From assembly GCA_030272155.1 (NCBI GenBank), contig CP126204.1, forward strand, positions 2,347,501-2,411,500: a stretch of 64,000 bases of DNA, written 5' to 3'. A program made the position numbers and the translations under genes. Under the pieces are notes generated by a model that was not told the DNA's origin, made no database searches, and saw only the letters and a program-made list of their open reading frames with translations. This document shows, piece by piece, positions 9,001-64,000 of the stretch (positions are counted from its first letter, which is position 1; each line of letters starts with the position of its first letter). Origin of the DNA: Tetradesmus obliquus. Taxonomy: Eukaryota; Chlorophyta; Chlorophyceae; Sphaeropleales; Scenedesmaceae.

Positions 9001-11546
9001 CCCATCTGCATTGCTCAGCGTCATGTTGCACTCGCTGCTGCCAAATGCATCGCTCTTGAGTGTGAAGGTGAGCACGCCTGTGGGGTCGACTGCCGGCTGC
9101 ACAGAGAACAAATTATTGGCAGCTGTGTCACACTCTGTGATGAAGTTGGGTTGCTCGCCTCCTGGGCCTGCCCAGATGTTGGTGGCCCAGCTGGCGTTGT
9201 GTGGGGCCGAGTCTTCATCCACAGTCACGGTATTTTTGGTGGTGTTGAATCTGGGGGGATAGCTGCCTGCGCAACACAGTGAGCGAGCCAAAGCATTGTG
9301 ATCAACATGCATGAACAGTGTGGGAAAAGGTGCAGTAGCATATCGTGCATAGCGCAGTCAAGCAAGTCTGCAGCTGGTACGGCCGAGCCATTAGATTGCA
9401 CGTGAAGTAAACGATGGCTGCATTGCGTGTGGAGGTGTGACGTGGCTGCGGGTGCAGGTGTCACGCGGCTACAGGTGCATGTGTAACGTGGCCGCGGGTG
9501 GATTTCTGCAGAAGCTTTGGCATCGAGCGTGCAGCTGCACAAGCTTTCCGCACAACTCACCTTTCTTCACCTCGATCGCCAGTGGGTGTGTTTCAGTCAA
9601 CCCAATAGGCGACCCAATCATGTCCGCGAGGGTGACCGAGCACCCCACGCTGCCTGACTGGTACTGCCTGGGTGTGAAGCTCAGCACACCATCGTTGGTG
9701 ATGCGTGGGCCATCGGCAAACAACCTTTGCGTTGTTTCAGAAGGGCTGCAAACAATGCTCATGAAGACAGGCTCGCCTTCCCCGCCTGCACCGGCTGAGA
9801 TATCAGTGGCCCAGGTTTCGTTGTAGGGCTCGGAGTCCGCGTCCCTGACGATGGCGGAAGGACCAGGCTTGAAGCTGGGTGGGTCGTTCACTGCAAGCAG
9901 CAAGTCGTCACACCATGCAGTCGCAGGATGAGTGCCGCTTGTTTTGGTTCCCGTGCAGCATCGCTGTACAGACTTTTGATCAAGGGCATTTGTTGTATAT
10001 GTTCAGACTGTATGATTCGGCAAGCTCAGCATGATGTCATTGCTGATTTATGCAGCAGCAGCAGCAACAGCACCTGCCATGCCGTCAACAATGCTGCTTC
10101 AGTTTACAGCAGTAGGAGCAGCAGCAGCAGCAGGTGCCGCACCTGGCACGACTTGGATGTCCAGTGTCGTTGTGCTGCTGCAAAGCCACGCGGCACACAG
10201 CCTCACGCTGAAACCGCACCGTCCAAAGGCATTGGGCGCAGGCTTGAAAGCAATCACGCCGGCGGGGCTGATGCTCGGCATGGTTTGCAGGATGGAGCAG
10301 TTGCCGGTGGGTGTGACGTTGAATTTCAGCTGGGAAGTTCCTTGAAAGACGAGCTCAGACGCCCAGGGCTTGGGTGCAACTTCCTCATCTTCTTGGGCTG
10401 AGATGATTGCTGGCCCAGCAACGAACGTAGGCCCTGCAAGGGGCCAATGCACAGCACAGTACAGTACAGTACAGTACAGTACGTTAGGTTCAGCGTTAAA
10501 ACCTGCTTTTGGCAGTAGCCCATGGCCAGAGGCCGATGTACGGAGGAGCGCAGCCGCACAGCGGCGGTTGTTGGGTTGAAAAGATGTGCTGCATGCCATT
10601 GCAGGCGAAGCACTGCAATGCTGACCTGTTGATGCTGTGTCGTGATGGCATGGACTTGACCATGTGTCGCAAGGTTGCTGCTGCGCATGATAAGGCCACC
10701 AAGCAAGCAAGCCAGCAAGCCAGCAAGCCAGCAAGCCAGCCAGCCAGCCAGCAAGCAAGCACGCACGCACGCATGCACGCACGCACGCACGCAAGCAAGG
10801 TGGCAGCGGAAGCGCACGACATCCGTCGCGCACGCAAGCGAGGTGGCAACGGAAGTGCACGACATCCGTCACGCAGTTGTCAGCAGTGCACTGCAGCCAG
10901 TCCACAGTGTGCTGTTCTACACAACCCTAGCTGCTGCTGTGAGCTGCTCTACCAATGCAACGATGTTCTGGCAAGCTGCTGCTGCTGCTGCTGCTGCTAG
11001 TACATGCCATGCAGTGCATACCCCACTCTGTTCTACCCAACCCACCCAGCCCGCCACTCACGTGGGCAGCGGAAGTTCACGATGTTCGTCACGCAGTTGT
11101 CACCCACACACTGCAGCCAATCCACAATGCGCGTCGCACACTGGCCCGCCAAACTGCACAGCGCAGACAACGGATCGGGTCCTCGGTCAAAGCCTAAGCA
11201 GCCGCCGCTGCTGGTGATGCCTGCACACTGCTGCATCAAGTTGGACAGCACATCATCCGCAGGCACTGCCGTTCCGTTGATGCTCAGCACTGAGTTGCAG
11301 CCGTTGTCTGATGATTTGATCTTGTCTACGTTGAAGGACGCAGGCAGCTTGTTGGCACATGCTGCCAGAGCCAGCGCGTTCAACCCCTTGGCGTCCTTCG
11401 CGCACGGGCGCTGGCGCCATGATCCAATGGCCGCACAATCGCAGGCTGTGTTGGTGGTTGTTGCAGAGCTAGAGCAGACCTGCACCACGTCAACCAGCCC
11501 TGGAAAGCGAGTCCGGCAGCTGCCAATGCCGCTCTTGCACCTGTAA

Positions 11547-16269: not shown

Positions 16270-16326
<57 letters not shown>

Positions 16327-16341: not shown

Positions 16342-16373
<32 letters not shown>

Positions 16374-16598: not shown

Positions 16599-18660
16599 GG
16601 GCAGCAGGTGTTACTGCTCTGTGCAGGGCCTGACAACTGTCGAGTCTCTCACAGACAAAACGGGTCTGATACGCACGCCAATGCCAGCGGTTGCTTCCAT
16701 TTCTCCGGCGGCCTGATATGGGAGGAGGGCAGACGGGCAGGCGGGCAGTGTGTCATACCACAACAGAATGTGGCATAGAACACGGCCACAAGCTGGTCAC
16801 CTCAGTGACTCGCCAGTCCCGTGCTGTTGCCATCACCAGCCCTGCTGCGCTGCCAGCCAGGCCGCACATGGGCGCCACCGCACGCGCAGCATGCGTCATG
16901 GCACTGGCTACAGACGGCCGCAGCCACTGGCGGTTGAAGCGGCTGCAGGGCCGCCCGGGCTGTTCAAATACATTGCAGATACAACAACACGGCACAGCTC
17001 AGTTGCTTGTATGTGTGCAGGTCATGATGAAAGCCGGGCTGTCTTGATACACAGCAGATGAAACAAGGCACAGGTCCTTTGCTTATATGACTGCAGGACA
17101 TGGCAAATGCGCATATGTGTCATAGCACTGGCAACGGATGGCCGCAGCCACTGGCGGTTGAAGCGGCTGCAGGGCCGCCCGGGCTGTGTAAATACATAGC
17201 AGATACAACAACAAGGCACAGCTCAGTTGCCTGTATTGTTGCAGGACATGGCAGATGCGCATGTGTCATGGCACTGGCAACGCCGTAGCCACTGCCAGTT
17301 GAAGCAGCTGCAGGGCCGGCCAGGCTGTTGGAACAGAAGTGTGCAAGGCGGATGAACCAACGTGTAAGTGCATCAGATACCACTCTGCTCAGTGGGCTGT
17401 GAATGCGCAATGCCAGCGCTGCATGCAGCTGCAACAAGTTGTCACAGTATCGCACCAATGCAGCGGCAGCAACGCCAGCAGATCTTTCCGAGCAGAGTAA
17501 GGCAAGCAGGCTAGCCGCACTTGCAGCAGGGTTTAGTCAACAATGCAGCCGCTAAACCGCACCCTCCTCACCTGCAATCCACCCTTGGCCCACACCCAGC
17601 TCAGCAGCTGCCCATCTGCCCCACAACTCGACAGCTGCTGTTCCAGCGGACTCCAGAGCACCCCTGTCACAAACCCAACGCCATGGCAGCGCCTGCAGCT
17701 GCTCTCGCCTGTTGACACGGCCAGTGAGAGCTGCTGCCGGCTGTAGCCTGCGGCAGTGTCACTAACACCGTCACTAACAACTGCGCCACTCCTCCAAACC
17801 GAAATGCTGCCGAGGTTCTTGCCAGCAGCTAGCAGCAGCTGCCAGCCTGCAGCAGCAGCATCCACGCCAGCTTCCACTGCTGCTGCTGCTGCTGCGGGGT
17901 GTGCCGCTGCTGCCACCACTGCCGTGCTCAGCACAAGTGCAGGCTGTCTGTCAGGCAGCAGGGCAGTGCCGAGGCAGGTGAGGGTCTGCTGCGCGGTGCC
18001 GCTGCTGGCAGCAGCAGCAGAAGGGTCTGCTGACCAGATTGTGACATCTCCTGCACTGGTGCCTGCAAAGCAGATAAGATACAAGGCGAAGTATGTGACA
18101 GCATTGGGAGGTAGTGGTGGTCGGTTGGCTAAAATATCCGCAATGATCTTTGCCAGGTGGTTGCTCCTGATGGCAGCGCTGCGCCACACAGATTGCAGCC
18201 CACCCAGCAACAAGCATCACCATAGCTGTGAACAGTTATGACGCATCGCCATTGCCCCAAGTATGCTACTCAGCCAACAGCATCAGATCATCAACATCAC
18301 AGTCTCTCGAAATCTCGTACCTACGGCCAGCAGCAGCACGTCACCATTGCTCAAACCAGCAACAAGCAGCATCATCGGCCAAGAAGCGTGATGCAAGGTG
18401 ATGATACGGCATTATCACCACCACAGTCTCTCCTTACCTACGGCCAGCAGCAGCACATCACCATTGCTCAAACCAGCAACAAGCAGCATCATTGGCCAAG
18501 AAGCGTGATACAAGCAACACTACGGCATTATCACCACTACAGTCTCTCCTTACCTACGGCCAGCAGCAGCACGTCACCAGCCTCAGCCCTGCACACAGCA
18601 CCAGGCAGCACCGCGCAGCTGCTGCTGCCAGCTGCAGCAGCAGCCTGCGCTGCACTATCC

Positions 18661-19226: not shown

Positions 19227-19611
19227 AGGTGAGCACTGAAGAACCTGCAGGGCATGTGCTGCTGGAGCCCATCAGCAGCAGCAGCAGCACAACAGGCCCA
19301 GCAGAACGCACATACCCAGTAGAATCCACCGTGCATTCACAGCTGCTGTCTCCTGAACAAGCAACATCGTTGTTCCACCACCCGCACTGCATTACAGAGC
19401 CCGCATAACATCTGCCTGCTCCCTCCTTTGCGCACAGGAGCTAGACGCATTGCTCCATTTGCTGCACCACCCGGCCGCTCACCGCATATGCGCAGGTGCG
19501 TGCCGAGATTACGTTGCCAGCGCGCAGCCGCAGCGAGGGCCCCCGCAGCGAGTTGCTGGCCAGCTGCACCTCAAGACCTGCTGCCTGCTGACTCAGCTTC
19601 ACAGACACACT

Positions 19612-19651
<40 letters not shown>

Positions 19652-19728
19652 AGAGAGGTAAAGTGAGTTGCTGGCCAGCTGCACTTCCAGCCCCGCTGCC
19701 TGCTGGCTCAGCTTCACAGACACGCTGC

Positions 19729-19764
<36 letters not shown>

Positions 19765-22296
19765 GGTTGGCAGAGCGCATATGCAGCAATCCCCGCATAA
19801 CGCAGCTGACCAGTGCGAAAGAAGTGCACGCACGGCCATGCAACTGCGTGCAACCATCTAAGTTACTCAAATGATACAATAGACACAAACCCACCTCTGG
19901 CACCCCACAGCCGCATCCCTGGACTCTGCAAATGCGCTCAGCGGCCCAACAATGCCGCCAGCCTGGCCAGCAGCAGCAGCAGCAGCCGCTGCAGCAATCA
20001 GCCCCAGCCCCTCAGCTGCCTCACTCCGCTTGCGCTTGCCACCCCTGCCCCTGCCCGGCCCTGCTGCTGCTGCTGCTTGGTCAGCAGCAGCAGTAAACCC
20101 TCCTGCGCCTTGCGCTGCCGCAAGCATTGCCTGCTTCATTGACCCCCGCCTGCCAGCAGCAGCAGCAGCAGCAGCAGCAGCACCTCTGCCAGCTGGCCGC
20201 ACCCCAGGGTCTGCTGTGGATCCGTCTAGCAGTGGCTGTGCTGCGCCGCCTGCTGCCATGAGGTTGTTGTAGCCCTTGGTGAGGTAGGGGTTGGTTGTGT
20301 CTTTGCGCAGCAGGGCGTCAAAGGACTGGATGACTGCCTTGCGGATGATGGCCTTGGTCAGGCTGATCAGCTGCAGGGAGAAATACATACATCAGATGGG
20401 GAGTGGCAGGGCGCTGTGCCATGCCATTTGAGTCAGGTGCTGCTTTTGTTGCAGTTTATTGCAGCTCCCAAGGCATGCGAGCATTAGATGAATGCCCTTG
20501 TTCTGGTGTGTGAACATGTTGGCAGCACCACTGCCTTGCGGATGATGGCCTTGGTCAGGCTGATCAGCTGCATGTGGGGACGGGAGGGAAAAAACAAAGG
20601 GAAGCGGGTGTTGGCAGGGCGGTGTGCAATGTTGGATTAGTTGTTATGATGGTTCAGGCTGAAAAAAAGAGGGGACAAGAAACAGGAAGCGGCTGTCATT
20701 GTTGGTACCATGGTGGGTGGTGTGCCATACGAGTTGGGTTGAACAGCTATCTCTGCCTCACCTTCTTTGCCTCTGTGGCCGCCTCCATGTGGTGAGGTGG
20801 CTGAACTCGCCCCACACCTGGGTCCACAGCCGCAAACTGTGATGTGCTAAAGCCAACATCAGCAACTTACATTGCTGCCTGCGCACCACCTTTTTGCCTC
20901 TATGCCCGCCTCCATGTGCTGCTGGCGCGGGGCGCTGAACCGTGCACCCTGTGCTGCTGCTGCGGCAACCGTAGCAATCATCAATGGCCCTGTGCCTACC
21001 TTCTTTGCCTCTGTGGCCGCCTCCATCTGTGTCTGGTGCATGTGGCTGAACTCGCCCCACACCTGGGTCTAGGCCGCAAACCGTAATATGCCAAAGCCGA
21101 TGACAACATGTTATGTTGCCGCTACTTCTCACCTTCTTTGCCTCTGTGGCCTCCATCTGCTGCTGGTGCAGGTGGCTGAACTCGGCCCACACCTGGGTCC
21201 ACAGCCGCAGGTCAACCTTGCGCAGGTGCTGGCCCTTGCTGTAGCGCGGCAGCTGCAGCAATCAACAAACACAAGATGGAGTGAGAACACATTGCACATA
21301 GCAGAACAGTGACCGCAGGTCCACCTTGCGCAGGTGCTGGCCCTTGCTGTAGCGCGGCAGCTGCAGCAATAAGAACACAGAAGAAGGGATGAGAACACAT
21401 TGCACATAGCAGAACAGTGACCGCAGGTCCACCTTGCGCAGGTGCTGGCCCTTGCTGTAGCGCGGCAGCTGCAGCAATAAGAACACAGAAGAAGGGATGA
21501 GAACACATTGCACATAGCAGAAAAGTGACCACTGGTCCACCTTGCGCGCGTGCTGGCCCTTGCTGTAGCGCGGCAGCTGCAGCAATCACAAACACAAGAT
21601 GGAGTGAGAACACACTTTTCAAAAAAGAGGAGTGACCGCATGTCCACCTTGCACAGGTGCTGGCCTTGCTGCACCGCGGCAGCTGCAGCAATTAGACAAC
21701 AGCACACAGAGTTTAAATCGCCCTCAAAAAGCAGGTGATGGCTTTGCCGCAGCTCGGCAGCTGCAGCTACTCTGCAAGAATAACACAGCAACATCATAGC
21801 AGAAGGGTATGACCTAGCCAGCCGTTGACATATAAAAATAGCTGCAGGTCAATGCAAACCCCGGAATTCTGCATTGAACCAGCGCACCTTCTTCCTGTCC
21901 ACGGCAAGGCGCAGCGTGGCAAGGAATCCAGGTTCTACGCCAAACCCCGGAAGGATTGATATCCTAAAAAAGCTGACACTAAACCCCTGAACCTCAACCA
22001 TGCAGCAGCCGCACCTTCTTCCTGTCCACAGCCAGGCGCAGCGTGGCAAAGCGCTGCGCCAGGTCCTTGGCAAACCCTGGAAGCATTGAAAACCTAAATA
22101 GCTGACACTGAACCCCTAAACCTCAACCATGCAGCAGCCTCACCTTCTTCCTGTCCACAGCCAGGCGCAGCGTGGCAAAGCGCTGCGCCAAAATGCGCGG
22201 CACCACCTTGCTCCAGGTGCCAGCGTCGCTGCTGGCCAGGCTGCTGCCCTGCGGCAGCAGCGAGGTGAAGGTGTCACTGGGGAAGTCGGCAGGCAC

Positions 22297-23808: not shown

Positions 23809-25051
23809 AGCAGCACTCTTCTTCTTGCTGCTGCCGCTGGCAGGCTTGCCTGGACTTGCCTTCTGCTTTCCGTGCGGGGACGCTGCCGCATTTCCTGCAA
23901 GCTGACCTGTCTTTCCTGCAAGCGCCTTGGCGCCTGTCTCTGCGCCCGACTCCGGCGGGGGCGCCCCAGGGTCCAGCAGGACCCCGTGGTCCCAGATGCC
24001 AGTGTCAGCCTCCCACACGGTCAGCTGCCGCACAGTTGTGGCCTGTAGCACAGCAGCAGCAAAAGCCGCCGCCGCCGCAGCAGCAGCAGGGGCAGTCGTG
24101 GGTGCGCTAGCAGAGAGCGGCTAGCGGTGCAGCACCATTGGTAGCGAGGCAGCTGGCGATAGTGGTACTTAGTGGATGTTGGCTCGCTGCAGCAGTACTC
24201 AACCCTCAGTCAATATGCCTCCCGGCTGCAGATCCATGCACAGTTTTGCTTTCCTTCTCTGCCCAGTGACAAGCTGCACTGAACCAAGAACCTGCTGATC
24301 ATGCGAGGATGACTCCAGACGCACAATCACAATAAGACACTGTGGCCTGCTACTGCTGCTGCAGCCAACCCACCAGATGCTTGCCAAACCCTACACACAG
24401 CACTGCAGCCCATCTGAAGCTCCACAGACACAATGTGCAATGTACACCAGCCCTGCCTCTCCGTGCTGCCACTGCCAAGCTGCATTCCACCCTTAAAGGC
24501 TGAGCATGCAGTGAACCATCCATCCACCGCACATGCAGCAACACACTGCTACATACTGCTGCACATCTGCCCACCTGCAGCGGCACTGACACGAATGTGA
24601 ACACGCCTGCCTCTCTTTGCTGTCAATGACAAGCTGTATCCCACCCTCATAGGCTGAGCCCACTCAGATCCATCAACTTCTCACCGCCAACATTGCTGCA
24701 CCCTTGACCTACTGCTGCATACTGCTGCAAATCTGCGCACCTGCAGCGGCACTGACACAATGTTGTACACGTCTGCCTCTCTTTGCTGTCACTGACAAGC
24801 TGTATCCCACCCTAGGCTGAGCCCACTCAGATCCATCAATTTTACAGCCTACATTGCTGCACCCTTGCCACACTGCTGCATCCCTGTCCACCTGAAGGGG
24901 CGCTGACACGATGTTGAGTGCATTTGCAATCGGCACGGTGATGCTGGCAGCAGTAGCGCTCATGACCCGCGTGCGCCACCAGCCATCATCCACAAACACC
25001 TCGAGGGCATCGCCAGGGGCAGGCTTGCCCGGCAGCGCCAGCAGCTGCAAA

Positions 25052-25105: not shown

Positions 25106-25729
25106 GGTGGCAGAGGTGGTGATTGGAGGTGGTGTGCCTTGAGGTGTTGCGCCTGAGCAGCTGCAGTGCCTGCTCATACAAGCACAGCAGCTGCAGGCAT
25201 ACGCAGCATCAAGCAGCACGATGATGGATGGACTGCATGTGCAGTGCACCTATGTAACAACATGTCCAGGGGCAAGCACTATTACTGCCAGCTGCAGCCA
25301 ACAGCCGCATCAACAGCAGCAGCAGCAGCGGCAGCCGCCCAAGCACACACCACGAGATGCACAACACCAAGCAGCTCAAGCGCACCTCCTGTGGCTGCTT
25401 GGGCCGCAGCATATTGGTCAGGTCTGTGTGCAAGTGGTGCCCCAACGCACCAGCAACAGCAGCAGCATCCCTCAAAAACACAGTGAAATTCATCACACCA
25501 AGCAGCTCAAGCGCACCTCCTGTGGCGGCTTGGGGCGCAGCATGTTGGTCAGGTCTGTGTGCAAGTGGTGGCCTTGTGCAGCAGCAGCGGCAGCAGCAGC
25601 GTCTGCTGCAGGGCCTGGGCCTGGCAGTGGGAACCATTCCCGCAGCAGTGCATTGGGTGGCTCCTCCTCATGCAGTGCGGCAAACTCAACCAGAGCAAAG
25701 CCGTGCTGCAGCTCCACCAGCCTGCAGCA

Positions 25730-25760
<31 letters not shown>

Positions 25761-25847
25761 TATGTGAGGGCGTGTTGGGTGGCTCCTCTTCATGCAGCGC
25801 GGCAAACTCAACCAGAGCAAAGCCGTGCTGTAGCTCGACCAGCCTGT

Positions 25848-25884
<37 letters not shown>

Positions 25885-25969
25885 TGTGAGAGCGTGTTGG
25901 GTGGCTCCTCTTCATGCAGCGCAGCAAACTCAACCAGGGCAAAGCCGTGCTGCAGCTTAACCAGCTTGT

Positions 25970-26004
<35 letters not shown>

Positions 26005-26775
26005 GTGAGAGCATGTTGGGGGCTCCTCTTCATACAGCGCAGCAAAAACAAAGATACACAGAAATGGGTCAAACATGGATGCAGAGATGTGCAGCTAGGA
26101 TACCATTGAAGCGTTGACTGCAGCCCGACAACGCAGTTTTGCACCATGCCAGCCACCCACCTGCCAGCAAACCAGGCTCCTGCCGGCCCCTCCTCGCTCA
26201 TCATGACTTCCACCTCATCACCAGCAACAAACACAGCACACCACAAAACAATACCTGAACGACAGCCCCACCAAACCCCTAACCACCCACCTGCCAGCAA
26301 ACCAGGCTCCTGCAGGCCCCTCATTGCCTCCACCTCATCACCAGCAGCAAATGCAGCACACCACAAAAGACACCTGAACAACAGCTCTACTAAACCTCTC
26401 CTCTAAAACCCCCACCGCCCACCTGCCGGCAAACCAGGCTCCTGCAAGCCCCTCTTCGCTCATCATGACCTCCACCTCATCACCAGCAGCAAACGCAGCA
26501 TGGCCCACGGCAGTGCGCGGCAAATGGGCATTGGGATCATCTGCATCAGCCGCACCTGCTGCTGCAGGAGCGGCAGCAGCAGCAGCAGCAGCAGCAGGAG
26601 CAGCAGGTCCGTCACTGCCAGCAGCAGGATCTTCAGCAGCAGCTGCAGCAGCGTCTGGTGTCTGCTTTTGTTGCTTGCTGCGGCTGCCGCCGCTTGCCTT
26701 GCTGCCTGCTGCAGACTTCCTGCCAGCTGCAGCTTGCTTGGGCTTGCCCTGTGTGCTAGCTGGTGTGGCCGCTGG

Positions 26776-30130: not shown

Positions 30131-30436
30131 GTATAAGGAAAGTTGCCGAATTGCATTCATTACAAGCATCAGCATCATGCAACATAATGCGCACTCACAT
30201 GGCAAGAAGTGGTCCCCCGAAAGGCCACCGTGGCTGCTGAACCTCAGATTAGCATATAAGGAAAGTTGCCGAATTGCATTCATTACAAGCATCAGCATCA
30301 TGCAACATAATGCGCACTCACATGGCAAGAAGTGGTCCCCCGAAAGGCCACCGTGGCTGCTGAACCTCAGATTAGCATGTGCAGCTCCTGCTTCTGCTCC
30401 TACGTCGTCTAGTATTACCTGCAACCATAATAACAC
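30131..30436 (-). repeat. Dispersed exon-like segment, copy B, with internal 125-bp duplication
   Basis: The first part, from TATAAGGAAAGTTGCCG to the CTCAGATTAGCATA word, is present twice in tandem (from 30131 and from about 30256), followed once by the rest. It matches 13898-14083. The extra block is donor-side on the minus strand, the same pattern as the in-gene duplications elsewhere in the window. Confidence 0.85.
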
Positions 30437-31982: not shown

Positions 31983-34900
31983 ATGGCGAACCTTACGCAG
32001 AAGGAAATGGACATCCAGATGCTGCTGGCAGCTGGTGCGCAGCCTCTTACAGCAATCATATGTAGCGCGATAACGTAGTTTAAGCGCGGCTTGGACCGCC
32101 TTGGTGCCCGCTGCAGTCGCCAGCAGTAAAAGCTCATCATTGCAGGCGTCTGGGGCCGTGGGGTGCCTGCTGAGCAGCTGTGGCAGGCCCCTGCGTGCAG
32201 ATCCACCGGCATGTGTGGTTCGAAGCATTTCAGCTGCGCTGGAGCCCAGCCTGCAGCAAAACAGCAGCAGCAGCAGCACTGTGCTGCTGCTTGTTGTTGC
32301 CAGCCAGCAGCCCACTACATCACAGCTCCTCACATGCTCCATACATCCTTCCCCCGTACCCTGTTCTCATTCGAACACACTTCCACCCTTCTGATGCACA
32401 TGAAACCTCTCTGATGCACATGATCAACCTCAAACGTCTGCTTCTCCCTGCGGCAAACCGCAAACCGCAACCGCTGCAGGATGCCACCTGGGCACCAAGA
32501 ACTGCAACCACCAGATGGAGCGCTACGTGCACGCGCGCCGCCAGGATGGCATCTACGTCATCAACCTGGAGAAGACCTGGGAGAAGCTGCAGATGGCTGC
32601 ACGCATCATCGTGGCCATCGAGAACCCCCAGGACGTGGTGGTGCTGTCCGCACGCCCCTACGGCCAGCGCGCGGTGCGTGGCAGCGGCTTGCAGGGCTCT
32701 TGCATGGCTTGCAGGGGTTTGGTTGTGTATCCTTAGGGGCTAGGGGTGCCGCAGGGGGTGTATGCAGGGCAGCCCAGCAGCAGCGGCAGCAGCCATGGCG
32801 GCGGCGGTGCTGTCCGCACGCCCCTACGGCCAGCGCGTGGTGCGTGGCAGCAGCTTGCAGGGCTCTAGCATGGCTTGCAGGGGTTTGGTTGTATGCTTTA
32901 AGGTGCTAGGGGTGCGGGTGGGGTTATGTGCAGGGCAGCCCAGCAGCAGCGGCAGCAGCAGCCATGGCGGCGGCGGTGCTGTGCGCACGCCGCTATGGCC
33001 AGCGCGCGGTGTGTGGCCAAGGCAGCAGCAGAAGCAGCAAAAGCAGCAGCGGGAAACAGCTTGCAGGAGCATGGGCGATAGGGGCGCAGCGGGGGATAAG
33101 GGGGCAGGCGGCGCAGCACAGCAGCTGCGGCAGCACATGAGCAGCGGCGGCGGCAGCAGCAGCAGCACGTGGAGCGGGAGTGTTTGCTTTGCAGCAGCAG
33201 CTGCTGGTGAAGCCTGCAATCGCAAGAGGGCTGCAACAGCAGGCGGTGCAGGAGCAGTGGCAGCAGCTGCTGGCGGATCTGCTGGCGCTGTAGGAGGCAT
33301 TTCAGCAAGCAGTGTGCTGGAGCAGGCAGGGCTCACAGCCGCCATTTGCCCATGCACAAGCAAGCTAATGCTGGCATCTACATTGGCTCTGTGGCTTCAG
33401 CAGCAGCTGCTATTTTACCAGGCTACAACCACAGCAGTGGTTGCTTTGTCAAAGCCAGGCACCTCCAGCAGCAGCAGGGGCAGCAGCGGCGGCGGCGGCG
33501 GCAGCATGGACGCCCGGAAGCAGCCGCAGCAGCAGCATTGACGCCCAGCAGCAGCAGCAGCAGCAGATGTCATCTATGCTATCTGCAGCATGCAGCAGGG
33601 CGGGGAGGGACGGCTAGACAGCTGCAGCACAACAGCAATCGCAGCGATCGCATACATGCTGTTTTCATGCGCGTGGCTGCATCTGGCAGGCACTGGCGCA
33701 CTTGTTCCGTACATGCTTCCCTGTCATGCTTCCCTGTCATGCTTCCCTGTCATGCTTCACATTCCTGGCATCATACCTGGTGTTCGCTGCAGCGTGGCCA
33801 CTTTCTTTAGGTTTGACTCTCAGCCGCAGCGTACTGGGGCTCTTGTTGTCTTCAAACCCTTCTTCCTTCTCACCACTGGCCCTGCGTTGCGCTGTGTCTG
33901 CTGCTGCAGGTGTTCAAGTTTGCGCAGTACATCGGCGCCAAGTCTCTGGCTGGCCGCCACACCCCTGGTACCTTCACCAACCAGATCCAGAAGCAGTTTG
34001 AGGAGCCTCGCCTGCTCATCCTGACAGGTGCGGCTGCGCAGAAACGAAGCAGTAAAGCAGCAATAGCAGTAAAGCAGCAATAGCAGCTTCTTGAACAGTT
34101 TTGAAGCAGTTGGACGAGCCCCGTCTGCTCCTCCTGACAGGAGAGCGCTTTTTGGGTGTCTGTTCAGCAGCTGGCGCGCAGCAAGTGACGACCATGGCAG
34201 CTGTAGCATGCGGGCGAAGGGCAAAGCAGCTGTAGCATGCGGGCGCAGGCCATGGCAGCTGTAGCGCCAGCCATGCGGCGGCAGCCGGGGCAGCAGCTGT
34301 GCCAGCTGTCCTGCCCATATGGCCACCAGCCACCTTCTTTGGTTGCAGGGCAGTCGCTGGTCAGCTTCCTTTGCAATTGATTGCATAGTCATTGTCACAT
34401 GTGATGTGACAAGGGCAATGCAGCTATTTGCATGGCGATGCTGTCAGCTGCACATGCGCGCCTAGTGCCATATGTCGGCTGCTCTCGCGCCAGCTGCTCA
34501 CTGCAAGTGTCTGTAGGCAATCTGCCAGGTGCATTTGTGGCGATGCTTTTGATTTTACCTGCTTTTGATTTTACCTGCGTCCGCTCCTCCATTGATTTGA
34601 AAGCATCTCTTGTCCTTTGCACAGTTCACACCTGCTGTTGTGTTTTGCAGGCTGTCTGCTCTCTTCCTTATAGACCCCCGCACCGACCACCGGCCCATCA
34701 AGGAGTCCGCTTACATGAACATCCCCACCCTTGTTCACCTCCTCAACTGCACACCTGCTCAACGGCGCTGTTATCTGCTGCCATCTGCTGCCATATCTCC
34801 ATTCAACAGACCCCCGCATAGACCACCAGCCCATCAAGGAGCCGGCCTACATGAACATCCCACCTACATTCACTCTCCTCACCTGCACACATCATTGACA

Positions 34901-39156: not shown

Positions 39157-39250
<94 letters not shown>

Positions 39251-39346
39251 AAATGCCGTCAGGTTACTCTTCAAGTCCAGCTCCTCTTCATCAAAGGTGT
39301 GCTCACACTCATCGGGCAAGAATGCGGCATCAGGGGTTGCAGCCCT

Positions 39347-39383
<37 letters not shown>

Positions 39384-39479
39384 GAATGCCGTCAGGTTAC
39401 TCTTCAAGTCCAGCTCCTCTTCATCAAATGTGTGCTCACACTCATCGGGCAAGAATGCGGCATCAGGGGTTGCAGCCCT

Positions 39480-39513
<34 letters not shown>

Positions 39514-40039: not shown

Positions 40040-43000
40040 CAGATGTGTCAGCCCGTCTCAAGCAATGCTGCTGGTACTTGCAGTTGTGCATGTAGCTGGT
40101 GCTCCTGTGTTGCTGGCTGCACACAATGCTCTAAAATGCACGGCTTACACGGTGCTCGAAAGCCTCCTGAGCACGCCACACACATCCTATATCTGTCTGC
40201 AAGCTGCAACTTCCCGCTGCAGCAAGTCATAACAGCTGATTGTGTGTTATCAAATATGCTGTGCTCCTGCTGCTACATACCACCTTCATCCTCAACATGA
40301 TACTGTTACCGCCTCACCTCCTCATCCAAGTAGGCCACCTCCTCTGCTGACTTGCTGTTGCTCCTGTCTGACCAGGCGCCCACACGGCCAAAGCCGGCTG
40401 ACCGAGTAGGGCTGGCCCCGTTCGACATGTTTGACTTGTTTGACTTGTTTGACTTTGTTGGTGAGGCAGCATAGGATACATTGCTGCTGTAGGTGCTGCC
40501 GTCAGCAGGGCCGTTGCTGCTGTAGGTGCTGTTGCCATCAACGGAACCATCCAACTCGTCCTGCACAGCAGCAGTGTGAGTGCATGCAGCATGTCAGCAT
40601 AACTTTTGTATCTGACAATGAGAGAGGATAGTTACATGTGGGTCCGGGCACCATCTTAAATGGTATGAGCCACAACAGGTTGAACACAAGGTCTGAGACC
40701 AGAAAAGGAGAGTGAACACCGTATAACACAATGCACACCCTTGAACACCGAATCTCTCATGTTATATCCAGGAACGTCTTACTGCGGTGCGCAGCGGCAC
40801 CCCACCTCACCGATAGCTTGCTCTAAGTGCAAACCACACCAACAGATAGCATGTTGTCGCTTACAATGATTTGCAGCAACAGTAGCCCTGCCCGCACAAA
40901 TTGTAATGATGTACCAGTTGAAGTGGACATGCGGGTTGCTTACTTGGCCGTCAGCTCTTCAGCAAGTGCCAGCATCACATGTGGACTGCACCGCCACGCA
41001 GCATGCTCACCTGCCCAGACTGCTGCTTTGTGCTGTGGTGGTCTAGCTTTTCTGAAGCATCCTCGCCAGCCTCACGCCGCCGCTGGGCGCCTACTAAATC
41101 TCTGTGTAACAGGCAGCATTGTGCTGCTGCAAGTTTGTGCAAGGTGTATGCCAGGTGTTTGCAGCCCTGTTAGTGTGCACTGGCCGTTACGCACCTGGTC
41201 CAGCTGCTGCTGTGTGCTGTGCCCCAGCCATACATTCAATCCATCTCTGCTAGCATCACGCCGTCGATTTGAGTAGTCCAGATGACCAAACACTTTTTGA
41301 ATCGACGATTGATTTTGAAACCTGCCGCTCCTCACCTGATGCAAGTGGTTGCTGCTGTGCTGCAGCTTTCCAGAGGCATTCTCGCCAGCCTCACGCCGGC
41401 GCTTGGCGCCTAACGTGCGCTTGACAACGTATGCCGACAGCGCCACAGCGCACACCAGCGCAACCGCAATGCCGGCAATGGCACCTGCACAGAAAGAGCA
41501 TTGGCAATCAGGCTGCTGTCAGTGCACCCCTCCAGCAACAAAGATTGTCGTGCAGTCCAGGCCCTTCCGCAGTTGGTTACACATGCAGCAAAGACTGCAC
41601 TCAGTTGCACCAACAGCTGCTGTCATAGCTTAGCCTCCATGTGCTGCCAGCCCACCTGAGCCCAGCTTGCCACTCTTGCTTCGCTGCTGTGGCACCATTT
41701 CCAATCGCGTGTATGTTCCAGGATACCATACACGCAAATTTGGCAGCAGCACACAACCCCAGCACACAATCTCATCAGCCTTCCTGAGCCCAGCATGCAG
41801 GTCTTGCCCCAATGCTGTGGCACCAACTTCGTTGACATGTGCATTGCAGCAGGCCGCACATGCAAACTCGATAGCAGCACACAATCTCAGCCCACAACCC
41901 CAACCCACCTGAGCCCAGCTTTCCAGTCTTGCCCCGCTGCTGCGGCACCATTTCCATTGCCGCCCCATCCAGCGCTGCAGCATTCGGGGACACCAGGTAG
42001 CTCACAAGGCCTCCCCATGCACTAGGCAGGCTGCTGGCTCCATAGAGCCGGTCTGCATTGGTGCGCAGGTGGCTAGTGGCGAGTTCGATCTCCTTTGCTG
42101 GGGTGTCTGGTTTGAATTCGACGTATGCCAAGGCAACGACAGAGCCACGCACGATGGCCATGACACCTGCACAGCAGATATGCAGCAGTCAGGAGCTGCC
42201 AGCTGTGAACTCGGCATATGCCAGGGCAATGACGGAGCCGCGCACGATTGCCATGACACCTGCAATCACAGGGTGGCCGCAACGGCAGAGGTAGATGTGC
42301 AGCAGTCAGGAGCAGGCAGGAGAGCGGTCAGGTTTACACGCAACATATGCCAAGGCAATGACAGAGCCGCGCACGATGGCCATGACACCTGCAATCATAG
42401 GGTGGTGGCAACGGCAGCGGTACGGGGGATTTTGAGCAGTCAGGAGCAGGCAGGAGCGGTCAGGTTTCAACTCGGCATATGCCAGGGCAATGACGGAGCC
42501 GCGCACGATGGCCATGACACCTGCGATCACAGGGTGGCGGTAACAGTGGCAGGTGAGGATGTGCGGCAGTTGAGAACTGGCAGCTGTGGTTTTGGTGCTG
42601 GGATCAACCCTAAGCCATGTGCACATTTGACACCTCCTCCTGTGCTTCACACAAGGCAACTCAACTCAGCCTGAATCAGTGCATCTAGGCCAACCTACCT
42701 GCGTCCTGCACGTTCTGTGTGTTGCCGACTGACGACTTGAGCCACGTCACAACATCGGACTTGAAGCGTGCTGTGTTCTCAGGCGAGGAAACTAGCTTGT
42801 CATAATCCATATCGATCTTCAGCTTGGTGTAAACCTTGGTTGGCTGCCTGGCAGGTGACAGTGTAATCGGCGCAGTCAGCCCGTCACTGTTACGCCAGCT
42901 GTCACTGCCGCCAGCTTGACCAGGGCTGGGGATCAAGCTGTCAGCTGAGTCAGCAGCCTGAGTCTGAGTCTGAGTTTGAGTCTCAGCTGAGTTTGGAATC

Positions 43001-44766: not shown

Positions 44767-46297
44767 ACCATCGGGCGCCTCTGGGCGTGCGCAGCGGTCC
44801 CTGTAATGTGGCTTGCCGACTGTTGCTCCTGGCCCCATGCTCCAGTCTGGTGCACACAGGCAGCCACCAACAGTCTTCTCTGCAAAGCATTGCAGCAGTG
44901 CAAAGTGTGGCAGGTCTCTTCAGATCAGCGACAGGTCTGTGCAGTGCTGCGAATGATGCTTATAGATGCGATATAGGCCAAGAGTGAGGCTGTTCAGGCT
45001 GTTGCTATGTCGCGTTTTAACGCCGGCTGTAGCAGTAGCTACGTGTGCTGTTACAGGAATCAGCTGACTGCTCAGGACATCCGGAGACGCGGCTGCCCGT
45101 TCTTCTTCCTGGGATGCAGTGCCTTAATTGTGACTGGCTGGTTCAATCAGCCACATGTCGAAACTGCCGGCTGGCTGCGGCTGCTGCTGCTGCTCAGGCT
45201 GTTCTCATACAAGCAGTCACCGCTGACGGTGCTGCAGAAGTTGTAGAACACGTCGCTGCCTGCTGCTGCTGCTGGTGCTGCTGCTGCTGCTGCTGCTGCC
45301 CTGCAGCAGTTGCTGCTATGCATGAGGACATGCCACTCACCTCTGACAGAGCTGCAGTAGTCGTAGAACACATCGCTACCGTTAGCGCTTGTGTATACGC
45401 CGTAGTACCCAAGGCAGGTGTTAGGGTTCACCTGGCACCAATCGCCCTGCAAGTGTTTTTGAGCAGCAGGATACAGTGTAGCAGGTTGCAGTGGCCACAC
45501 TGGCATTGCCTGCTGCTGTGCCTAGCAGCTGGTATCACAACTCAGCATACAACATGCGCTTTCTGAGCAAGACGTACCACTCCTGGCACAAAACAGTTCA
45601 AAGCTGCAGTGTATGTGTAATGCTGTCACTGCTTTTGCACTGCTGCTCTCTCACAATGGGGTCCATGTCAGGGTTGGCCAAAGCCAGTCAAACACCCAAA
45701 CATACAAATGCTGGCACTAACAAATCCAATGTGCAGTGTAGCAGTGACGACGTCACTGCTGCTGACTCACCATAGGATCCATATCAGGGTTGGCCAAAGC
45801 CAATCCACATGCAAACGCACCAATGCTGGCACATACAATTCTAGTTTGCAGTAACGATGTCACTGCTGCTGACTCACCATGGGGTCCATATCAGGGTTAG
45901 CGCAGCCTTGCCGCTCAATGCCTGCCGCATCATACCAAGTGGACAGGCACTCGCAGCCTGCCTGTGAGACCATCTGCACCGCTGCATCTGGCACTGCTGC
46001 ATCTGGCACTGCTGCATCAGGCGCTGCCGCTGCTGGCGCTGCTGCTGCTACTGGTTCTTCTTGGCAGTGTATATAGCTGCAGGCCAGCAAGGCCAGCAGC
46101 AGTGCTGTTGCTGCTGGCAGCCGAGCCCTGGGCAGAGACCGCCCCTGAACAACGGCAGCGGCCGGGACGCAACAGCAACACAAGGTGCATGATAAGAATG
46201 CTTTCTTGTAAGCTGAAATGTAGCGATTTGGAAGTCTATTGAAAGCTATGTGAAATTGCGCTGCTGAATGAGGAAACAGCAAGGCAGTAGCAGGCAT
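38391..46297 (-). CDS. Single-pass membrane protein with Cys-rich, CBM1-like and SEA-like ectodomain
   Basis: Proposed exons: 46297-45878 (start uncertain), 45446-45341, 44446-44187, 43772-43698, 43452-42699, 42166-41909, 41484-41336, 40560-40318, 40003-39897, 39154-38996, 38532-38391; phases agree, about 890 residues. A basic stretch and hydrophobic core (RLPAATALLLALLACSYIHC) is the likely signal peptide. Two modules follow of the type CANPD.DPM joined over an intron to WC.V.P.TC. Next comes a fungal CBM1-like pattern (FDQCGGKSKC, CCPQGTRCYRQDSFYYQCL), a Gln/Glu-rich linker, and a region resembling SEA domains (KLKIDMDYDKLV ... VMAIVRGSVVALAY). The membrane segment is AIAGIAVALVCAVALSAYVV followed by KRTLGAKRRRE, then a Ser-rich cytoplasmic tail. 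I infer a cell-surface receptor or wall anchor; no named family is claimed. The N-terminal exon may start at an acceptor before GRSLPRARL, with the true Met further upstream. Confidence 0.78.
38755..38825 (-). repeat. Downstream copy of an exon 3' end and donor
   Basis: The end of the exon 39154-38996 (YGQGQGRNSGTGTPVGNR, donor GTTGGT) recurs near 38820-38760. Confidence 0.85.
39155..39750 (-). repeat. Four upstream copies of an acceptor and exon start, each with a (CTG)n tract
   Basis: Each roughly 130-bp unit has, on the minus strand, (CTG)n, CAG and AATPDAAFLPDECEHT. Copies begin at about 39347, 39480, 39608 and 39745. The tract next to the complete exon at 39154 is the longest (about 30 repeats); the others have roughly 5-10. 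Confidence 0.95.
41040..41335 (-). repeat. Downstream copies of the membrane exon's 3' end
   Basis: GAKRRREAGENASGKLQ-like sequence and the following HLHQ donor region recur near 41265-41195 and 41095-41040 with substitutions. Confidence 0.75.
41655..41908 (-). repeat. Two downstream copies of an exon 3' end and donor
   Basis: MVPQQRGKTGKLGSG at the end of the exon 42166-41909 recurs near 41835-41780 and 41705-41655. Confidence 0.85.
42167..42535 (-). repeat. Three upstream copies of an acceptor and exon start
   Basis: Acceptor plus GVMAIVRGSVIALAYAELKP precedes the complete exon three times (near 42265, 42395 and 42525), spaced about 125 bp. Confidence 0.9.
44040..44090 (-). repeat. Downstream copy of an exon 3' end
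   Basis: CANLDGDPMVGPG-like sequence repeats the end of the exon 44446-44187 (CANPDGDPM, donor GTAGGG) about 130 bp further on. Confidence 0.8.
45194..45340 (-). repeat. Downstream copy of an exon 3' end and donor
   Basis: GSDVFYNFCSTVSG repeats GSDVFYDYCSSVRG of the exon 45446-45341. A CAG-rich tract separates the two. Confidence 0.85.
45650..45877 (-). repeat. Two downstream copies of the first exon's 3' end and donor
   Basis: ANPDMDPM followed by a GT donor occurs at the true exon end (45878) and again near 45765-45800 and 45650-45675. Confidence 0.85.
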
Positions 46298-61000: not shown

Positions 61001-64000
61001 GCTGCTTGCTCATTTGTTGTTTTCCTGCAGGCCCAGCCTCACGCCTGGCACAGATTGTGGAGTGGCTAGGAGATGGTGACTACGTCATCGTGTTTGATGA
61101 GTGCCACAAGGCAAAGAACGCGGTGCGTTGCTGCAACAGCTGCTGCTGCAGCGGCTCCTGCAAGCTGGGTGGTTGTTTCAATTGCGGCGCTGCTGCAGCT
61201 AGTGCGATGGTGTGCAGGGCCTGCCATCTCTATCAGCACCAGCCAGTTATCGCTCACATCTTTGCTAACTTGTGGATGCTCTGATGTTTTATTCTATGTG
61301 TCTTCACTGGTGTGGCGCCCAATTGCTGTTGCCGGCTGTCAGTCTGCGTTCAAATTGTGTTACTTTTGTCATTTTCTGCAGATGCCCAAGGAGAAGAAGA
61401 ACGAGTTCCCCATTGACATGATGGGGGGAGAGGCCATGGACAGCAAGACCAAGAAGGGCCAAGGAGGAGGCTTTGCATTCACAACAGGCGGCAGCAAGAC
61501 AGCGCGGGTAAGAGCATGCACATGATGCCTATGGATGGGTCTTTGTATGCTGCTTCTTGCTTATAGGTGCATGCTGTGATCGTTGCTGCTGCATCCATCG
61601 CTGCTGCAAGCATTGCTGCTGCGTGCATTGCTGCTGTAACAACGCTGCTGCATTCATTGCTGCTGCTGTGCAGGCTGTCATCGAGCTGCAGCGGCGGCTG
61701 CCCAACAGTCGAGTCATGTACGTCAGCGCAACAGGTACACAAAGTGACTAACAAGCAGCCCACAGCTGTCCTAGTTCTGGCTCTGCAGTGTTTAAGCACC
61801 TGCTGCTGTACTGCTGCACCTGGTGTCTGTGTCTGCCCCTGCTCTGTATTGCAGCAGCTGCACCCGTCTGCTTGAGCTCTTCTGCAATAACCATCTTACC
61901 TTACATACGTTCAAAGGGGTAGCTACTACAACATTTTGTTCCTGGCAGCTGATGACAGCTTACAGACTGTTTTGAACCATGTTATAACATGTTATTTCTT
62001 CCTGCAGGCGCCAGCGAGGCGGAGAACCTGTGCTACATGGAGCGGCTGGGCCTGTGGGGCCCCGGCAGTGCGTTCCCCTCCAAGAAGGAGTTTGTGGGGC
62101 TGCTGCGGCAGGTGCGGCGGCACACCGGCCTAGCTGTTATGTTGCAGAATCAAGTAATGCGGTCAAACTTGTTGTGGCAAGGCAAAACATACTATCAATG
62201 AACACTTAGGGTTTGGCCCGGCAGCGCCTTCCCCTCAAAGAAGGAGTTTGTGGGGCTGCTGCGGCAGGTGCGGCGGCACACAGGCCTCCCCATATCAGTC
62301 TGCTGCAGCTGTACCACATGGTATTGTGTACTTATGTCTTCTAAGCATGTATTGCATGTTTCTGATGCCGTGCCCGTGCTACCCTCACGCTGCCTTCTTG
62401 CTGCTGCTGCTGCTGCTGCAGGGTGGCATTGGCGCCATGGAGCTGGTGGCAATGGAGCTGAAGGGGGCTGGCTGCTACCTGTCTCGCTCCCTCAGCTGGG
62501 CGGTGAGTGCAGGCTGCACCAAACAGACACCACCGTCATTGCTTGCAGCACATGCAGCCTGCCTGTCTGTTTCACCAGCAGACAGTAAGTCTATTGATGG
62601 GGGCTGGCTGCTATCTGTCTCGCTCCCTCAGCTGGGCGGTGAGTGCACGCTGCACCAAACAAACAGCGCTGCCATTGCTTGCTGGACATGCTGCAGCCTG
62701 CCTGTCTGTGTTTCCTGCAAACAGCAAGCCTGTGGAATTTCAGCACCAGATGTTTAGTCTGTGTCCTGGACATTGTGCGGTGGTGCGTTGCAGTGGCGCG
62801 CAGCACTGTCGTTCACCTGTAGGCAGCTTGCAGCATGTTGCTGTAGCTACGCATGCGATATCTTACAGGCCGCCGCTGCCTGCTGCTGCTGGTGCTGCAG
62901 GATGTGCGCTTCGAGAGTTTGGCGATTGAGGCCTCTGAGTCGTTTGTGCAGCAGTGCAACGGTGACTGTTGCCTGCTGCTGCTGCTGCTGCTGCAGGATG
63001 TTCGCTTTGAGACGGTGGCAATTGGCGCCTCAGAGGCCTTTGTGCAGCAGTACGACGCTGACTGTTGGCTGCTGCTGCTGCAGGATGTTCGCTTTGAGAC
63101 GGTGGCAATCGAAGCCTCTGAGGCCTTTGTGCAGCAGTACGATGCTGCTGTCGACCTGTGGCAGGACACGCGCGAGTTCCTGCGGCTGCATGGCCGCGAC
63201 GTTGGCAGGGTGGATAAAGGGGTGAGCGCTGCACAGCAGCATGCGGGCCACCTCAGCGTTGACTTCTGTCACAGATGTAAATGGGCACAGCAGTTGGAAG
63301 GTTGATTTGTGCGCACAGGCCACGTAGGCTTTTACAGTGTGCCGGCCACCTGCTGGACGGCTGCGCACCGCCACCACACATTGCACCCTTCAGCTGTTGG
63401 AGCGAGCCCGTTCGTTTGAGCTAAGCTGGGACCTTAACCGAACATATGTTGCTTTATGCGCTACTGACACTGCATCACATGTGGTGTTTTGCTTGCTCTG
63501 CTGCTTGCGCTGCTGCAGAACCTGATGGGCCAGTTTGGCAGCGCGCAGCTGCGCTTCTTCAGGCAGCTCTGCACAGCAGCAAAGGTGGGCACGCGTGCAG
63601 CGAGTGTGTTATATCTGCTATTGTGTGTGTTTCCAGAGTGGCGGCCTGCTTAGGGCTCTGGGGATAGGCTGGCTCCATGTTCTGATGTGCAGCACATCAA
63701 GATTTGCTGCTTGATACCTGCAGTGAGCTACACAGCATCACACTTTCCTACATCAGGTCACAGCTCCCTGGTGCTGTACTGCTGTTTCTGATGCATATGT
63801 TTTGCCGTCTTTTCCGTAACGGCTTTTGTTAATGTAACAACATATGCAACATTTGTAACAGGTGGACACAGTGGTGCGGCTGTGTGAAGAGGCACTAGCG
63901 GCAGGCATATGCCCAGTGCTGGGCATACAGAGCATTGGAGAGGCGCGCACTACTGTGTTTCTCAACACCTCAATCAAAATATGAAAAAAAACCTGTCTAA
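58083..64000 (+). CDS. SBNO: Strawberry notch / FORGETTER1-like helicase, C-terminal part outside window
   Basis: Strawberry notch proteins are nuclear helicase-like ATPases; the Arabidopsis member FORGETTER1 works with chromatin remodellers in heat-stress memory. Exons: 58083-58265, 58736-58910, 59149-59253, 59673-59743, 60101-60196, 60408-60774, 61031-61122, 61382-61507, 61674-61734, 62008-62111, 62422-62502, 63084-63221, 63519-63584, 63862 on; phases agree, about 595 residues visible. Motifs: LQFHAVKLACARHEQLLPDG, Walker A GDGPGVGKGRQ, ALWVSVSTDLVVDARRDL, MFCTYDLL, DECH box VIVFDECHKAKN, VMYVSATGASEAENLCYM, GIGAMELVAMELK and IQSIGEART. A low-complexity AT-hook-like insert (KKGGKVGRPPK) follows MFCTYDLL. 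The last exon stays open to a TGA at 63982-63984; in the family the protein continues, so either a donor lies just before that stop or the copy is short. Confidence 0.94.
59335..59400 (+). repeat. Downstream copy of helicase exon 3 3' end and donor
   Basis: LPDGSRAGFFLGDG with its GTGAGCTGG donor recurs about 140 bp after the exon end at 59253. Confidence 0.92.
60003..60088. other. AT-rich island in a helicase intron
   Basis: About 85 bases of almost pure A/T with repeated ATCATATAAAT and CTATTTAT/CTATTAAA words, in sharp contrast to the GC-rich surroundings. It lies just before the exon at 60101, so it may contain the branch point region. Origin unknown. Confidence 0.7.
62214..62285 (+). 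repeat. Downstream copy of helicase exon 10 3' end and donor
   Basis: PGSAFPSKKEFVGLLRQ followed by GTGCGGCGGCACAC repeats the exon end at 62111. Confidence 0.92.
62590..62655 (+). repeat. Downstream copy of helicase exon 11 3' end and donor
   Basis: GAGCYLSRSLSWA-like sequence (here preceded by TIDG-type changes) and GTGAGTGCA recur about 138 bp after the exon end at 62502. Confidence 0.9.
62895..63083 (+). repeat. Two upstream copies of helicase exon 12 acceptor and start
   Basis: CTGCAG plus DVRFE(S/T)(L/V)AI.ASE.FVQQ occurs near 62901 and 62997 and again at the complete exon (63084). The copies differ by several substitutions, so they are older than the giant-gene array. Confidence 0.92.

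What the first reader, a model, noticed from the sequence alone, without database searches (positions are those of the whole stretch)
10798..63083. Splice-boundary blocks are tandemly copied into adjacent introns in six of eight genes
In the giant surface gene, TFIIIC90-like, RPSA, membrane protein, TRAPPC3 and helicase genes, short blocks (roughly 60-150 bp units) carrying an exon end, its splice site and some intron are repeated in direct orientation. Exon 3'-end blocks always lie downstream and keep a GT donor in most copies; exon 5'-end blocks lie upstream and keep an AG acceptor. Both kinds occur on both strands, always oriented with the gene. At least 25 exon boundaries are affected. Each gene therefore offers the spliceosome several near-identical donors or acceptors, of which usually one gives a whole exon. 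I know of no named system that does this; it could be a mutational habit of this genome (slippage or template switching at CTG hairpins) or a way to produce alternative mRNAs.
Basis: seen in the sequence. Interest (0 to 1): 0.88.

Follow-up and report, generated by a model that had tools for sequence, protein, structure and literature searches.

The report
Exon-end copies crowd algal introns
In the green alga Tetradesmus obliquus, short tandem duplications often straddle exon-intron junctions, leaving spare copies of exon ends and their splice sites in the introns, which could make it a natural test bed for how new introns and splice sites arise.

Summary
The genome is Tetradesmus obliquus. 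Tandem arrays, mostly with 80-170 bp units, occur in 16 of 20 sampled stretches. By eye, 15 of 18 window arrays and 19 of 31 elsewhere span a donor or acceptor, against 26-47% expected by chance. In genes placed by homology I count 13 boundary events and one intron-only event. A fair ab initio test gave only a weak shift.

Extra copies keep their exon part (91.5% identical) and usually GT/AG, while the intron part decays. CTG runs are not enriched, and 6 of 67 spare sites would give an open, in-frame mRNA.

Best reading: frequent local duplication, tolerated because splicing can ignore the spare site; exon parts then stay similar through exchange with the real exon. Targeting to splice sites, or a function, is not excluded. 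Boundary-spanning duplication is known from single genes; this frequency was not found in eight literature searches. No RNA data were available.

The parts
31983..36989 (+). RPSA (uS2) gene: exons 31983-32034, 32480-32673, 33910-34027, 35077-35294, 36414-36606, 36901-36989
   Evidence: reading; Pfam Ribosomal_S2; joined protein differs at one residue seen from the deposited 287-aa OEZ85_004466
32640..33017 (+). RPSA exon 2 donor block, unit 166 bp x 2.3, GT intact in the copies
34105..34140 (+). old copy of the RPSA exon 3 donor end, donor lost (GA)
34672..35132 (+). RPSA exon 4 acceptor block, unit 136 bp x 3.4; exon parts 94-98% identical, intron parts strongly diverged
35217..35861 (+). RPSA exon 4 donor block, unit 140 bp x 4.6, five GT donors
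36256..36327 (+). 72-nt copy of the RPSA exon 5 start (36 of 36 terminal bases identical to the real exon); the deposited protein of this strain includes it as a 24-aa in-frame exon
18318..18579 (-). donor block (GDVLLLAV|), unit 117 bp x 2.2
19550..19763 (-). acceptor block with CTG tract, unit 115 bp x 1.9
21205..21701 (-). acceptor block (LPRYSKGQHLRKVDLR), unit 108 bp x 4.6
21883..22190 (-). donor block (LAVDRKK|), unit 129 bp x 2.4
24452..24862 (-). donor block, unit 166 bp x 2.6 (by eye only; left out of the divergence tests)
25653..26046 (-). acceptor block, unit 122 bp x 3.3; AG lost in one copy
30132..30378 (-). donor block, exact 123-bp duplication (100%), the youngest case in the window
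39214..39761 (-). acceptor block with CTG tract, unit 133 bp x 4.2
42184..42544 (-). acceptor block (VMAIVRGSVVALAYV), unit 129 bp x 2.8
45638..45898 (-). donor block (NPDMDPM|), unit 107 bp x 2.4
62459..62709 (+). donor block in a helicase gene with an AAA_34 domain (strawberry-notch-like, name recalled), unit 136 bp x 1.8
   Evidence: Pfam AAA_34 match runs to this exon end
62973..63151 (+). acceptor block of the next exon of the same gene, unit 87 bp; three acceptor copies
   Evidence: the exon itself had no Pfam hit

Best explanation
The T. obliquus nuclear genome often makes local tandem duplications of about 80-170 bp. In genes with exons near 150 bp and introns of a few hundred bp, many of these straddle a splice site. 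They are tolerated because the splice site joined to the complete exon still gives the normal mRNA, so the spare exon end lies inert in the intron (inferred). Further copies then arise inside the array (inferred). The exon part of the spare copies stays similar to the real exon, most likely by recurrent exchange (conversion or unequal crossing-over) with that constrained exon, while the intron part drifts away (pattern shown, mechanism inferred). This keeps boundary arrays recognisable longer than intron-only arrays, which would explain part of the enrichment at splice sites.
For: Arrays of period 60-320 occur in 16 of 20 stretches taken by place. By-eye boundary share 34 of 49 (test). Homology places the exon side up to the boundary in RPSA, Snu114, GCS2, Mannosyl_trans3, RPE65, AAA_12 and AAA_34 genes: 13 of 14 events at boundaries, P 4e-7 to 4e-4 for expected shares 0.27-0.47. 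Exon part 0.915 vs intron part 0.592 ungapped identity, 64 of 74 copies higher in the exon part and 7 lower. Within Tandem Repeats Finder limits only, exon mismatch 7.5% vs intron 10.2%, exon lower in 17 and higher in 9 of 29 arrays, p 0.008. Changes private to a spare copy in the 9 of 23 arrays with alignable introns: codon positions 1+2, 5 of 237; intron 78 of 420. Outer array edge within 25 nt of the outermost intact splice site in 20 of 30 arrays. Offsets are not held to multiples of 3 (27 of 67), so spare copies are not kept for in-frame use.
Against: Of the arrays with 94% identity or more, 8 of 11 look boundary-spanning by eye (P 0.0016 to 0.08), so retention alone may not explain the enrichment. 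Exchange was not shown directly; codon-position bias in extra copies (31, 25, 52 changes at positions 1, 2, 3) and few in-frame stops (1 of 64) could also mean weak constraint. In one search the functional copy itself has 9 private changes at positions 1+2 against 5 in spare copies. The larger exon/intron contrasts rest on copies found by their exon core, which favours the exon. In several arrays the outermost intron part has no detectable relation to the spacers (L026 2627, L016 1572, window 34672 and 35217), which exchange does not predict by itself.
Confidence: 0.48

Rival explanations
1. The duplication process itself is aimed at exon ends, for example by transcription or co-transcriptional splicing (R-loops, paired nicks, polymerase pausing), so that breaks and refilling copy the exon end with its splice site.
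For: 13 boundary events against 1 intron-only event in homology-placed genes; 8 of 11 arrays of 94% identity or more at boundaries; array edges stop within 25 nt of the outermost splice site in 20 of 30; exon end - spacer - exon end layout with unrelated outer intron in L026 2627 and at both ends of RPSA exon 4.
Against: Exon overhangs vary from about 21 to 80 nt with no fixed breakpoint inside the exon. Short exons and introns already give 26-47% boundary hits, and the fair ab initio test is weak.
Confidence: 0.23
2. Nothing special: ordinary minisatellites in a genome with short exons and introns; boundary overlap is what chance and purifying selection leave.
For: Expected boundary share 26-47%. 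A model trained without arrays shows only a small shift (median 13.1 vs 10.6, no tail; window alone not significant); within predicted genic spans the collapsed test is not significant. At the longest unit length the sample gives P 0.07 and the 8 of 11 youngest arrays P 0.08.
Against: 34 of 49 by eye and 13 of 14 in homology-placed genes; exon parts of spare copies are conserved beyond the neighbouring intron.
Confidence: 0.17
3. The spare sites are kept because they are used: alternative donors or acceptors, or new exons, give regulated or variant mRNAs.
For: The deposited RPSA protein of this strain contains the exon 5 copy as an extra in-frame exon; an isoform of the other strain starts in the intron 2 spacer and joins a spare exon 2 end to exon 3. 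GT/AG intact in 67 of 74 copies; one copy of 64 with an in-frame stop.
Against: Only 6 of 67 spare sites would give an in-frame, stop-free product; cassette-exon potential at control level, 12 vs 14 of 64; offsets not held to multiples of 3. Gene models may be computed rather than transcript-based.
Confidence: 0.1
4. Assembly error.
For: Tandem arrays are a common place for assembly errors (general knowledge; no call).
Against: Chromosome-scale contigs (17 for 104.66 Mb); copies differ from each other by substitutions and indels; arrays in 16 of 20 sampled stretches.
Confidence: 0.02

Closest known systems
[quoted passage not shown] Ma, Lan and Niu 2016, PMC4974935; passages seen)
   Same: A tandem duplication takes in the 3' part of an intron and the 5' part of the next exon, carrying ready-made splice signals into the gene.
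   Different: One gene and one event there, with the new intron reported in transcripts; here many genes, both donor and acceptor sides, often more than two copies, and no RNA evidence in hand.
Rogers AGGT model and the ATP2A1 and fission-yeast cases (as described in PMC4974935, passages)
   Same: Tandem duplication inside genes creates extra GT and AG.
   Different: Those duplicate exonic AGGT segments; the units here contain intron sequence and an existing splice site.
Internal gene duplications / minisatellites in introns (general idea recalled; Gao and Lynch are named in the passages)
   Same: Short head-to-tail arrays found by Tandem Repeats Finder.
   Different: Most arrays here straddle exon ends by my reading, and the exon part of spare copies is better conserved than the rest of the unit.
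Tandem duplications after paired nicks in plants (recalled; my search for it, did not list it)
   Same: Duplications of about the same size without long homology (recalled).
   Different: No breaks were observed here; a possible source only.

Membership tests
[quoted passage not shown]
   32 boundary sites with 74 extra copies, GT/AG intact in 67
[quoted passage not shown]
   deposited RPSA proteins use two copies; evidence behind the gene models not seen, no RNA available
[quoted passage not shown]
Rogers AGGT model | duplicated unit is wholly exonic with AGGT | tested here: not met
   units contain intron sequence on one side of an existing splice site
Minisatellite arrays | head-to-tail copies of tens to hundreds of bp | tested here: met
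   Tandem Repeats Finder
Introner-like elements | same intron sequence dispersed at many loci | not tested
   whole-genome search did not complete; units were not compared genome-wide

The most novel reading that the evidence does not exclude
T. obliquus has a process that preferentially copies exon ends with their splice sites into the adjoining intron, gene after gene, and keeps the copies in step with the living exon, so that its introns are steadily fed with ready-made splice sites from which alternative junctions and new introns are drawn.
Probability: 0.22. Interest if true: 0.85.

Novelty: new variant of a known kind. Interest (0 to 1): 0.6.

Why it matters
How spliceosomal introns and alternative splice sites arise is still argued from few proven cases (as the abstract of PMC4974935 puts it). 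A genome in which boundary-spanning duplications of various ages sit in many genes would allow rates, fates and splicing outcomes to be measured directly, and it also warns that gene predictions in this alga may take spare copies for exons.

Tried and rejected
Ab initio gene finding written for the purpose (one search stopped with an error): the hand seeds were in the wrong frame, later versions missed most genes. Models from it were used for and, for splice scores, 100. The strong enrichment (p 1e-5 and 3e-4) is partly training bias, since copies had served as training exons, trained without arrays, is the fair version and is weak. One search stopped with an error and was redone.

CTG hairpins as cause: rejected. 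In-frame alternative products and cassette exons: few and no excess. Protein-level selection on spare copies: considered from codon-position bias, but serial copying from an exon that changes at synonymous sites gives the same bias. Introner elements: not testable. Assembly error: unlikely.

Left out of the divergence tests: window 24452, L018 6493, L021 7291, L022 5798 and the arrays read as not boundary or unclear. L024 and L027 (satellite-like; proline-rich coding repeats) were left out of the statistics. L024 and window 26777 were not read and are counted as not boundary. Three of the 31 arrays outside the window (L002, L004, L008) lie in loci fetched by similarity to a window segment, not by place. 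In one search, 14 of 23 arrays were skipped because their intron parts could not be aligned. In one search one array (L020) aligned only through gaps. Copies for searches were chosen by exon-core identity (0.70-0.75), which favours exon conservation. In one search two Snu114 ends were probably misplaced (donor 2; the fifth junction of the joined protein), and exon 1 there merges an acidic stretch. The edge count (21 of 31) included the RPSA exon 5 pair, which is not a Tandem Repeats Finder array; corrected to 20 of 30.

Literature: eight searches; their listings showed no paper describing this in Tetradesmus or other green algae. Papers seen as passages only: PMC7955037, PMC5966456, PMC4974935.

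Full report
What was checked. The window lies in a 104.66-Mb assembly of 17 contigs at C14:2347501-2411500. Contig C14 is 4,804,715 bp long, the same length as the contig given for the Tetradesmus obliquus protein OEZ86_008544 in the protein search, so this is T. obliquus. Besides the window I had twenty 10-kb stretches taken by place, at least one on each contig, and six usable loci of about 3 kb that one search had brought in by similarity (two more overlapped other loci and were dropped).

Arrays are a genome-wide habit. Tandem Repeats Finder lists 109 rows in the window, 21 of them with a period of 40 bp or more. After removal of overlaps 49 arrays of period 60-320 remained: 18 in the window and 31 elsewhere, in 16 of the 20 stretches taken by place and in three of the short loci. 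Most periods lie at about 80-170 bp; some longer rows are multiples of such a unit.

Most span a splice site by my reading. Read in gene direction, 15 of 18 in the window and 19 of 31 elsewhere are boundary-spanning; two are unclear (L013 7088, L016 241) and ten are counted as not (L002, L008, L011, L012, L019 9404, L021 1549, L023 5977, L024, two in L027). L024 and window 26777 were not read and stand as not. From averages published for a T. obliquus draft (mean intron 462 bp, 7.8 introns per gene, 452 aa; PMC5966456 table 1, passage seen; computed gene models) a unit of 90-160 bp placed at random in a gene and not wholly inside an exon would cross a boundary in 26-47% of cases. The observed share has P between 4e-10 and 1e-3 for all 49, between 4e-5 and 0.07 for the 31, and between 2e-5 and 0.05 for the 28 arrays in stretches taken by place, 18 of them boundary-spanning. 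This rests on reading by eye.

Homology supports it. The Pfam match ends at the donor or begins at the acceptor of the array in GCS2 (L013 1759), Mannosyl_trans3 (L014), RPE65 (L028, ending 3 aa before), AAA_12 (L017) and two GTP_EFTU exons (L026, one of them just under Pfam's cut-off). Of the 20 exon frames sent in these two calls, six gave such support, three gave weak or partial hits and eleven gave none. L026 carries Snu114: its exons align with the chain 8xi2_C, which I take to be the Chlamydomonas protein (partly recalled), and the copied exon start also gives faint local hits in the two other frames. The exon-joined protein aligns with four green-algal relatives without gaps at the three array junctions; there is a gap of 4-22 residues at another junction, where I probably misplaced a splice site. 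In RPSA 5 of 10 and in Snu114 3 of 18 boundaries have a copy in the adjoining intron; the other repeated intron tiles fall in the same arrays, except one marginal tile in RPSA intron 2 and one old duplication in Snu114 intron 9. With GCS2, Mannosyl_trans3, RPE65, AAA_12 and the AAA_34 helicase donor I count 13 boundary events and one intron-only event, P 4e-7 to 4e-4 for expected shares 0.27-0.47; intron-only events were sought by tiles only in RPSA and Snu114. The chance of a boundary for a 125-bp unit is 0.27 in RPSA and 0.41 in Snu114.

Tests that came out weaker. A coding model trained with all arrays removed gave array units a slightly higher boundary score than nearby random segments (window and sample together: medians 13.1 vs 10.6 for the 60-nt context; p 0.004-0.011 over three context lengths) but no excess above the 90th or 95th percentile of the control; the window alone was not significant, p 0.12-0.24. 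After collapsing arrays to one unit, predicted boundaries fell in 10 of 18 window and 11 of 28 sample units against 4.7 and 4.3 expected in the chimeric mode; keep-first gave 9 of 18 vs 4.9 (p 0.04) and 6 of 28 vs 3.9 (p 0.17); keep-last gave 6 of 18 vs 4.6 and 6 of 28 vs 4.3 (not significant). Within predicted genic spans no mode was significant. The gene finder is poor, so these tests lack power, but they do not by themselves prove enrichment.

Spare copies keep the exon part. Over 32 boundary sites and 74 extra copies, the exon part is on average 91.5% and the adjoining intron part 59.2% identical to the functional copy without gaps; the exon part is the better one in 64 copies and the worse in 7. 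Mismatch with the functional copy is 5.6, 4.4 and 16.3% at codon positions 1, 2 and 3, and 5.4% at the splice dinucleotide. Along the sequence (71 copies) identity is 0.90-0.98 from 20 nt inside the exon through GT or AG, then falls to 0.79 at +3 to +5 and 0.68-0.70 at +6 to +19 for donors, and to 0.53-0.54 at -11 to -20 for acceptors, while exon positions 30-40 nt away are still 0.80 (donors) and 0.89 (acceptors). Copies were found by their exon core, which favours this result. Counting only inside Tandem Repeats Finder limits, which favours the intron, the difference shrinks to 7.5 vs 10.2% mismatch, exon lower in 17 and higher in 9 of 29 arrays, p 0.008. In the 9 of 23 arrays with alignable introns, changes private to a spare copy are 4 of 119, 1 of 118 and 12 of 119 at codon positions 1, 2, 3 and 78 of 420 in the intron part; private changes of the functional copy there are 5, 4, 10 and 52. 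Over the arrays with at least three copies, spare-copy changes are 31, 25 and 52 and functional-copy changes 6, 6 and 23 at the three positions. The outer edge of the array lies within 25 nt of the outermost intact splice site in 20 of 30 (P 3e-7 if edges were uniform). Only 1 of 64 spare copies with an intact site holds an in-frame stop in its exon part.

Reading of these facts. Most spare copies cannot be translated as part of the normal frame: 27 of 67 intact spare sites lie at a multiple of three from the real one and 6 also leave the frame open; potential as in-frame cassette exon is at control level (12 of 64 vs 14). So the conservation is better explained by exchange with the constrained exon, or by re-copying from it, than by selection on the copy; neither was shown directly. 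Such exchange would make boundary arrays outlive intron-only arrays and produce part of the enrichment. But 8 of 11 arrays of 94% identity or more are boundary-spanning by eye, and in some arrays the outermost spacer shows no detectable relation to the inner ones (L026 2627, whose copies are 100% identical; L016 1572; RPSA exon 4 donor and acceptor). This layout of exon end - spacer - exon end would also fit duplication with filler during break repair. This is why targeting of exon ends stays a serious rival.

Use in mRNA. The deposited RPSA protein of this strain (P0001, 311 aa) contains [24 protein letters not shown] twice, that is, the exon 5 copy at 36256-36327 taken as an exon; the other strain's protein (P0002, 287 aa) does not. 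A 231-aa isoform of the other strain (P0010) begins in what is here the intron 2 spacer and runs through a spare exon 2 end into exon 3 (the spacer in this window is near 32763-32840). Whether transcripts support these models I could not see.

What is known. Ma, Lan and Niu describe a potato gene in which a tandem duplication across an intron-exon boundary gave a new intron (PMC4974935, passages). The present case differs in frequency and in affecting both donors and acceptors. The listings of my eight searches showed no report of it in this genus; most subscription journals are not covered.

Verdict. It is a new variant of a known kind, not a new system, unless targeting is shown.

Noticed in passing
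window 1-9400, minus strand: Giant surface-type gene with near-identical repeats spaced 1,299 bp and weak Big_9 / cadherin-like matches (spacing seen, Pfam).
   Followed up: no
window 16268-16608: Run of GGCA tetranucleotides about 340 bp long.
   Followed up: no
protein P0001 (OEZ86_008544): The deposited RPSA protein of this strain carries a 24-aa tandem repeat that comes from the exon 5 copy; possibly a gene-model error or a gained exon.
   Followed up: partly
L019:9404-9737: Glutamine-rich repeat with a 102-bp unit (34 codons), probably inside an exon: unit length a multiple of three.
   Followed up: no
L008:352-1139: 82-bp unit x 9.6 at 99% identity, no clear exon boundary.
   Followed up: partly
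L024:16-3959: 279-bp satellite-like array x 14.
   Followed up: no
L026 minus strand, intron 9 of Snu114: One old intron-only duplication (tiles at 30 and 174 of the intron).
   Followed up: no
window 34048-34086 and 33712-33758: Small minisatellites (17 and 13 bp units) inside RPSA introns, not at boundaries.
   Followed up: no
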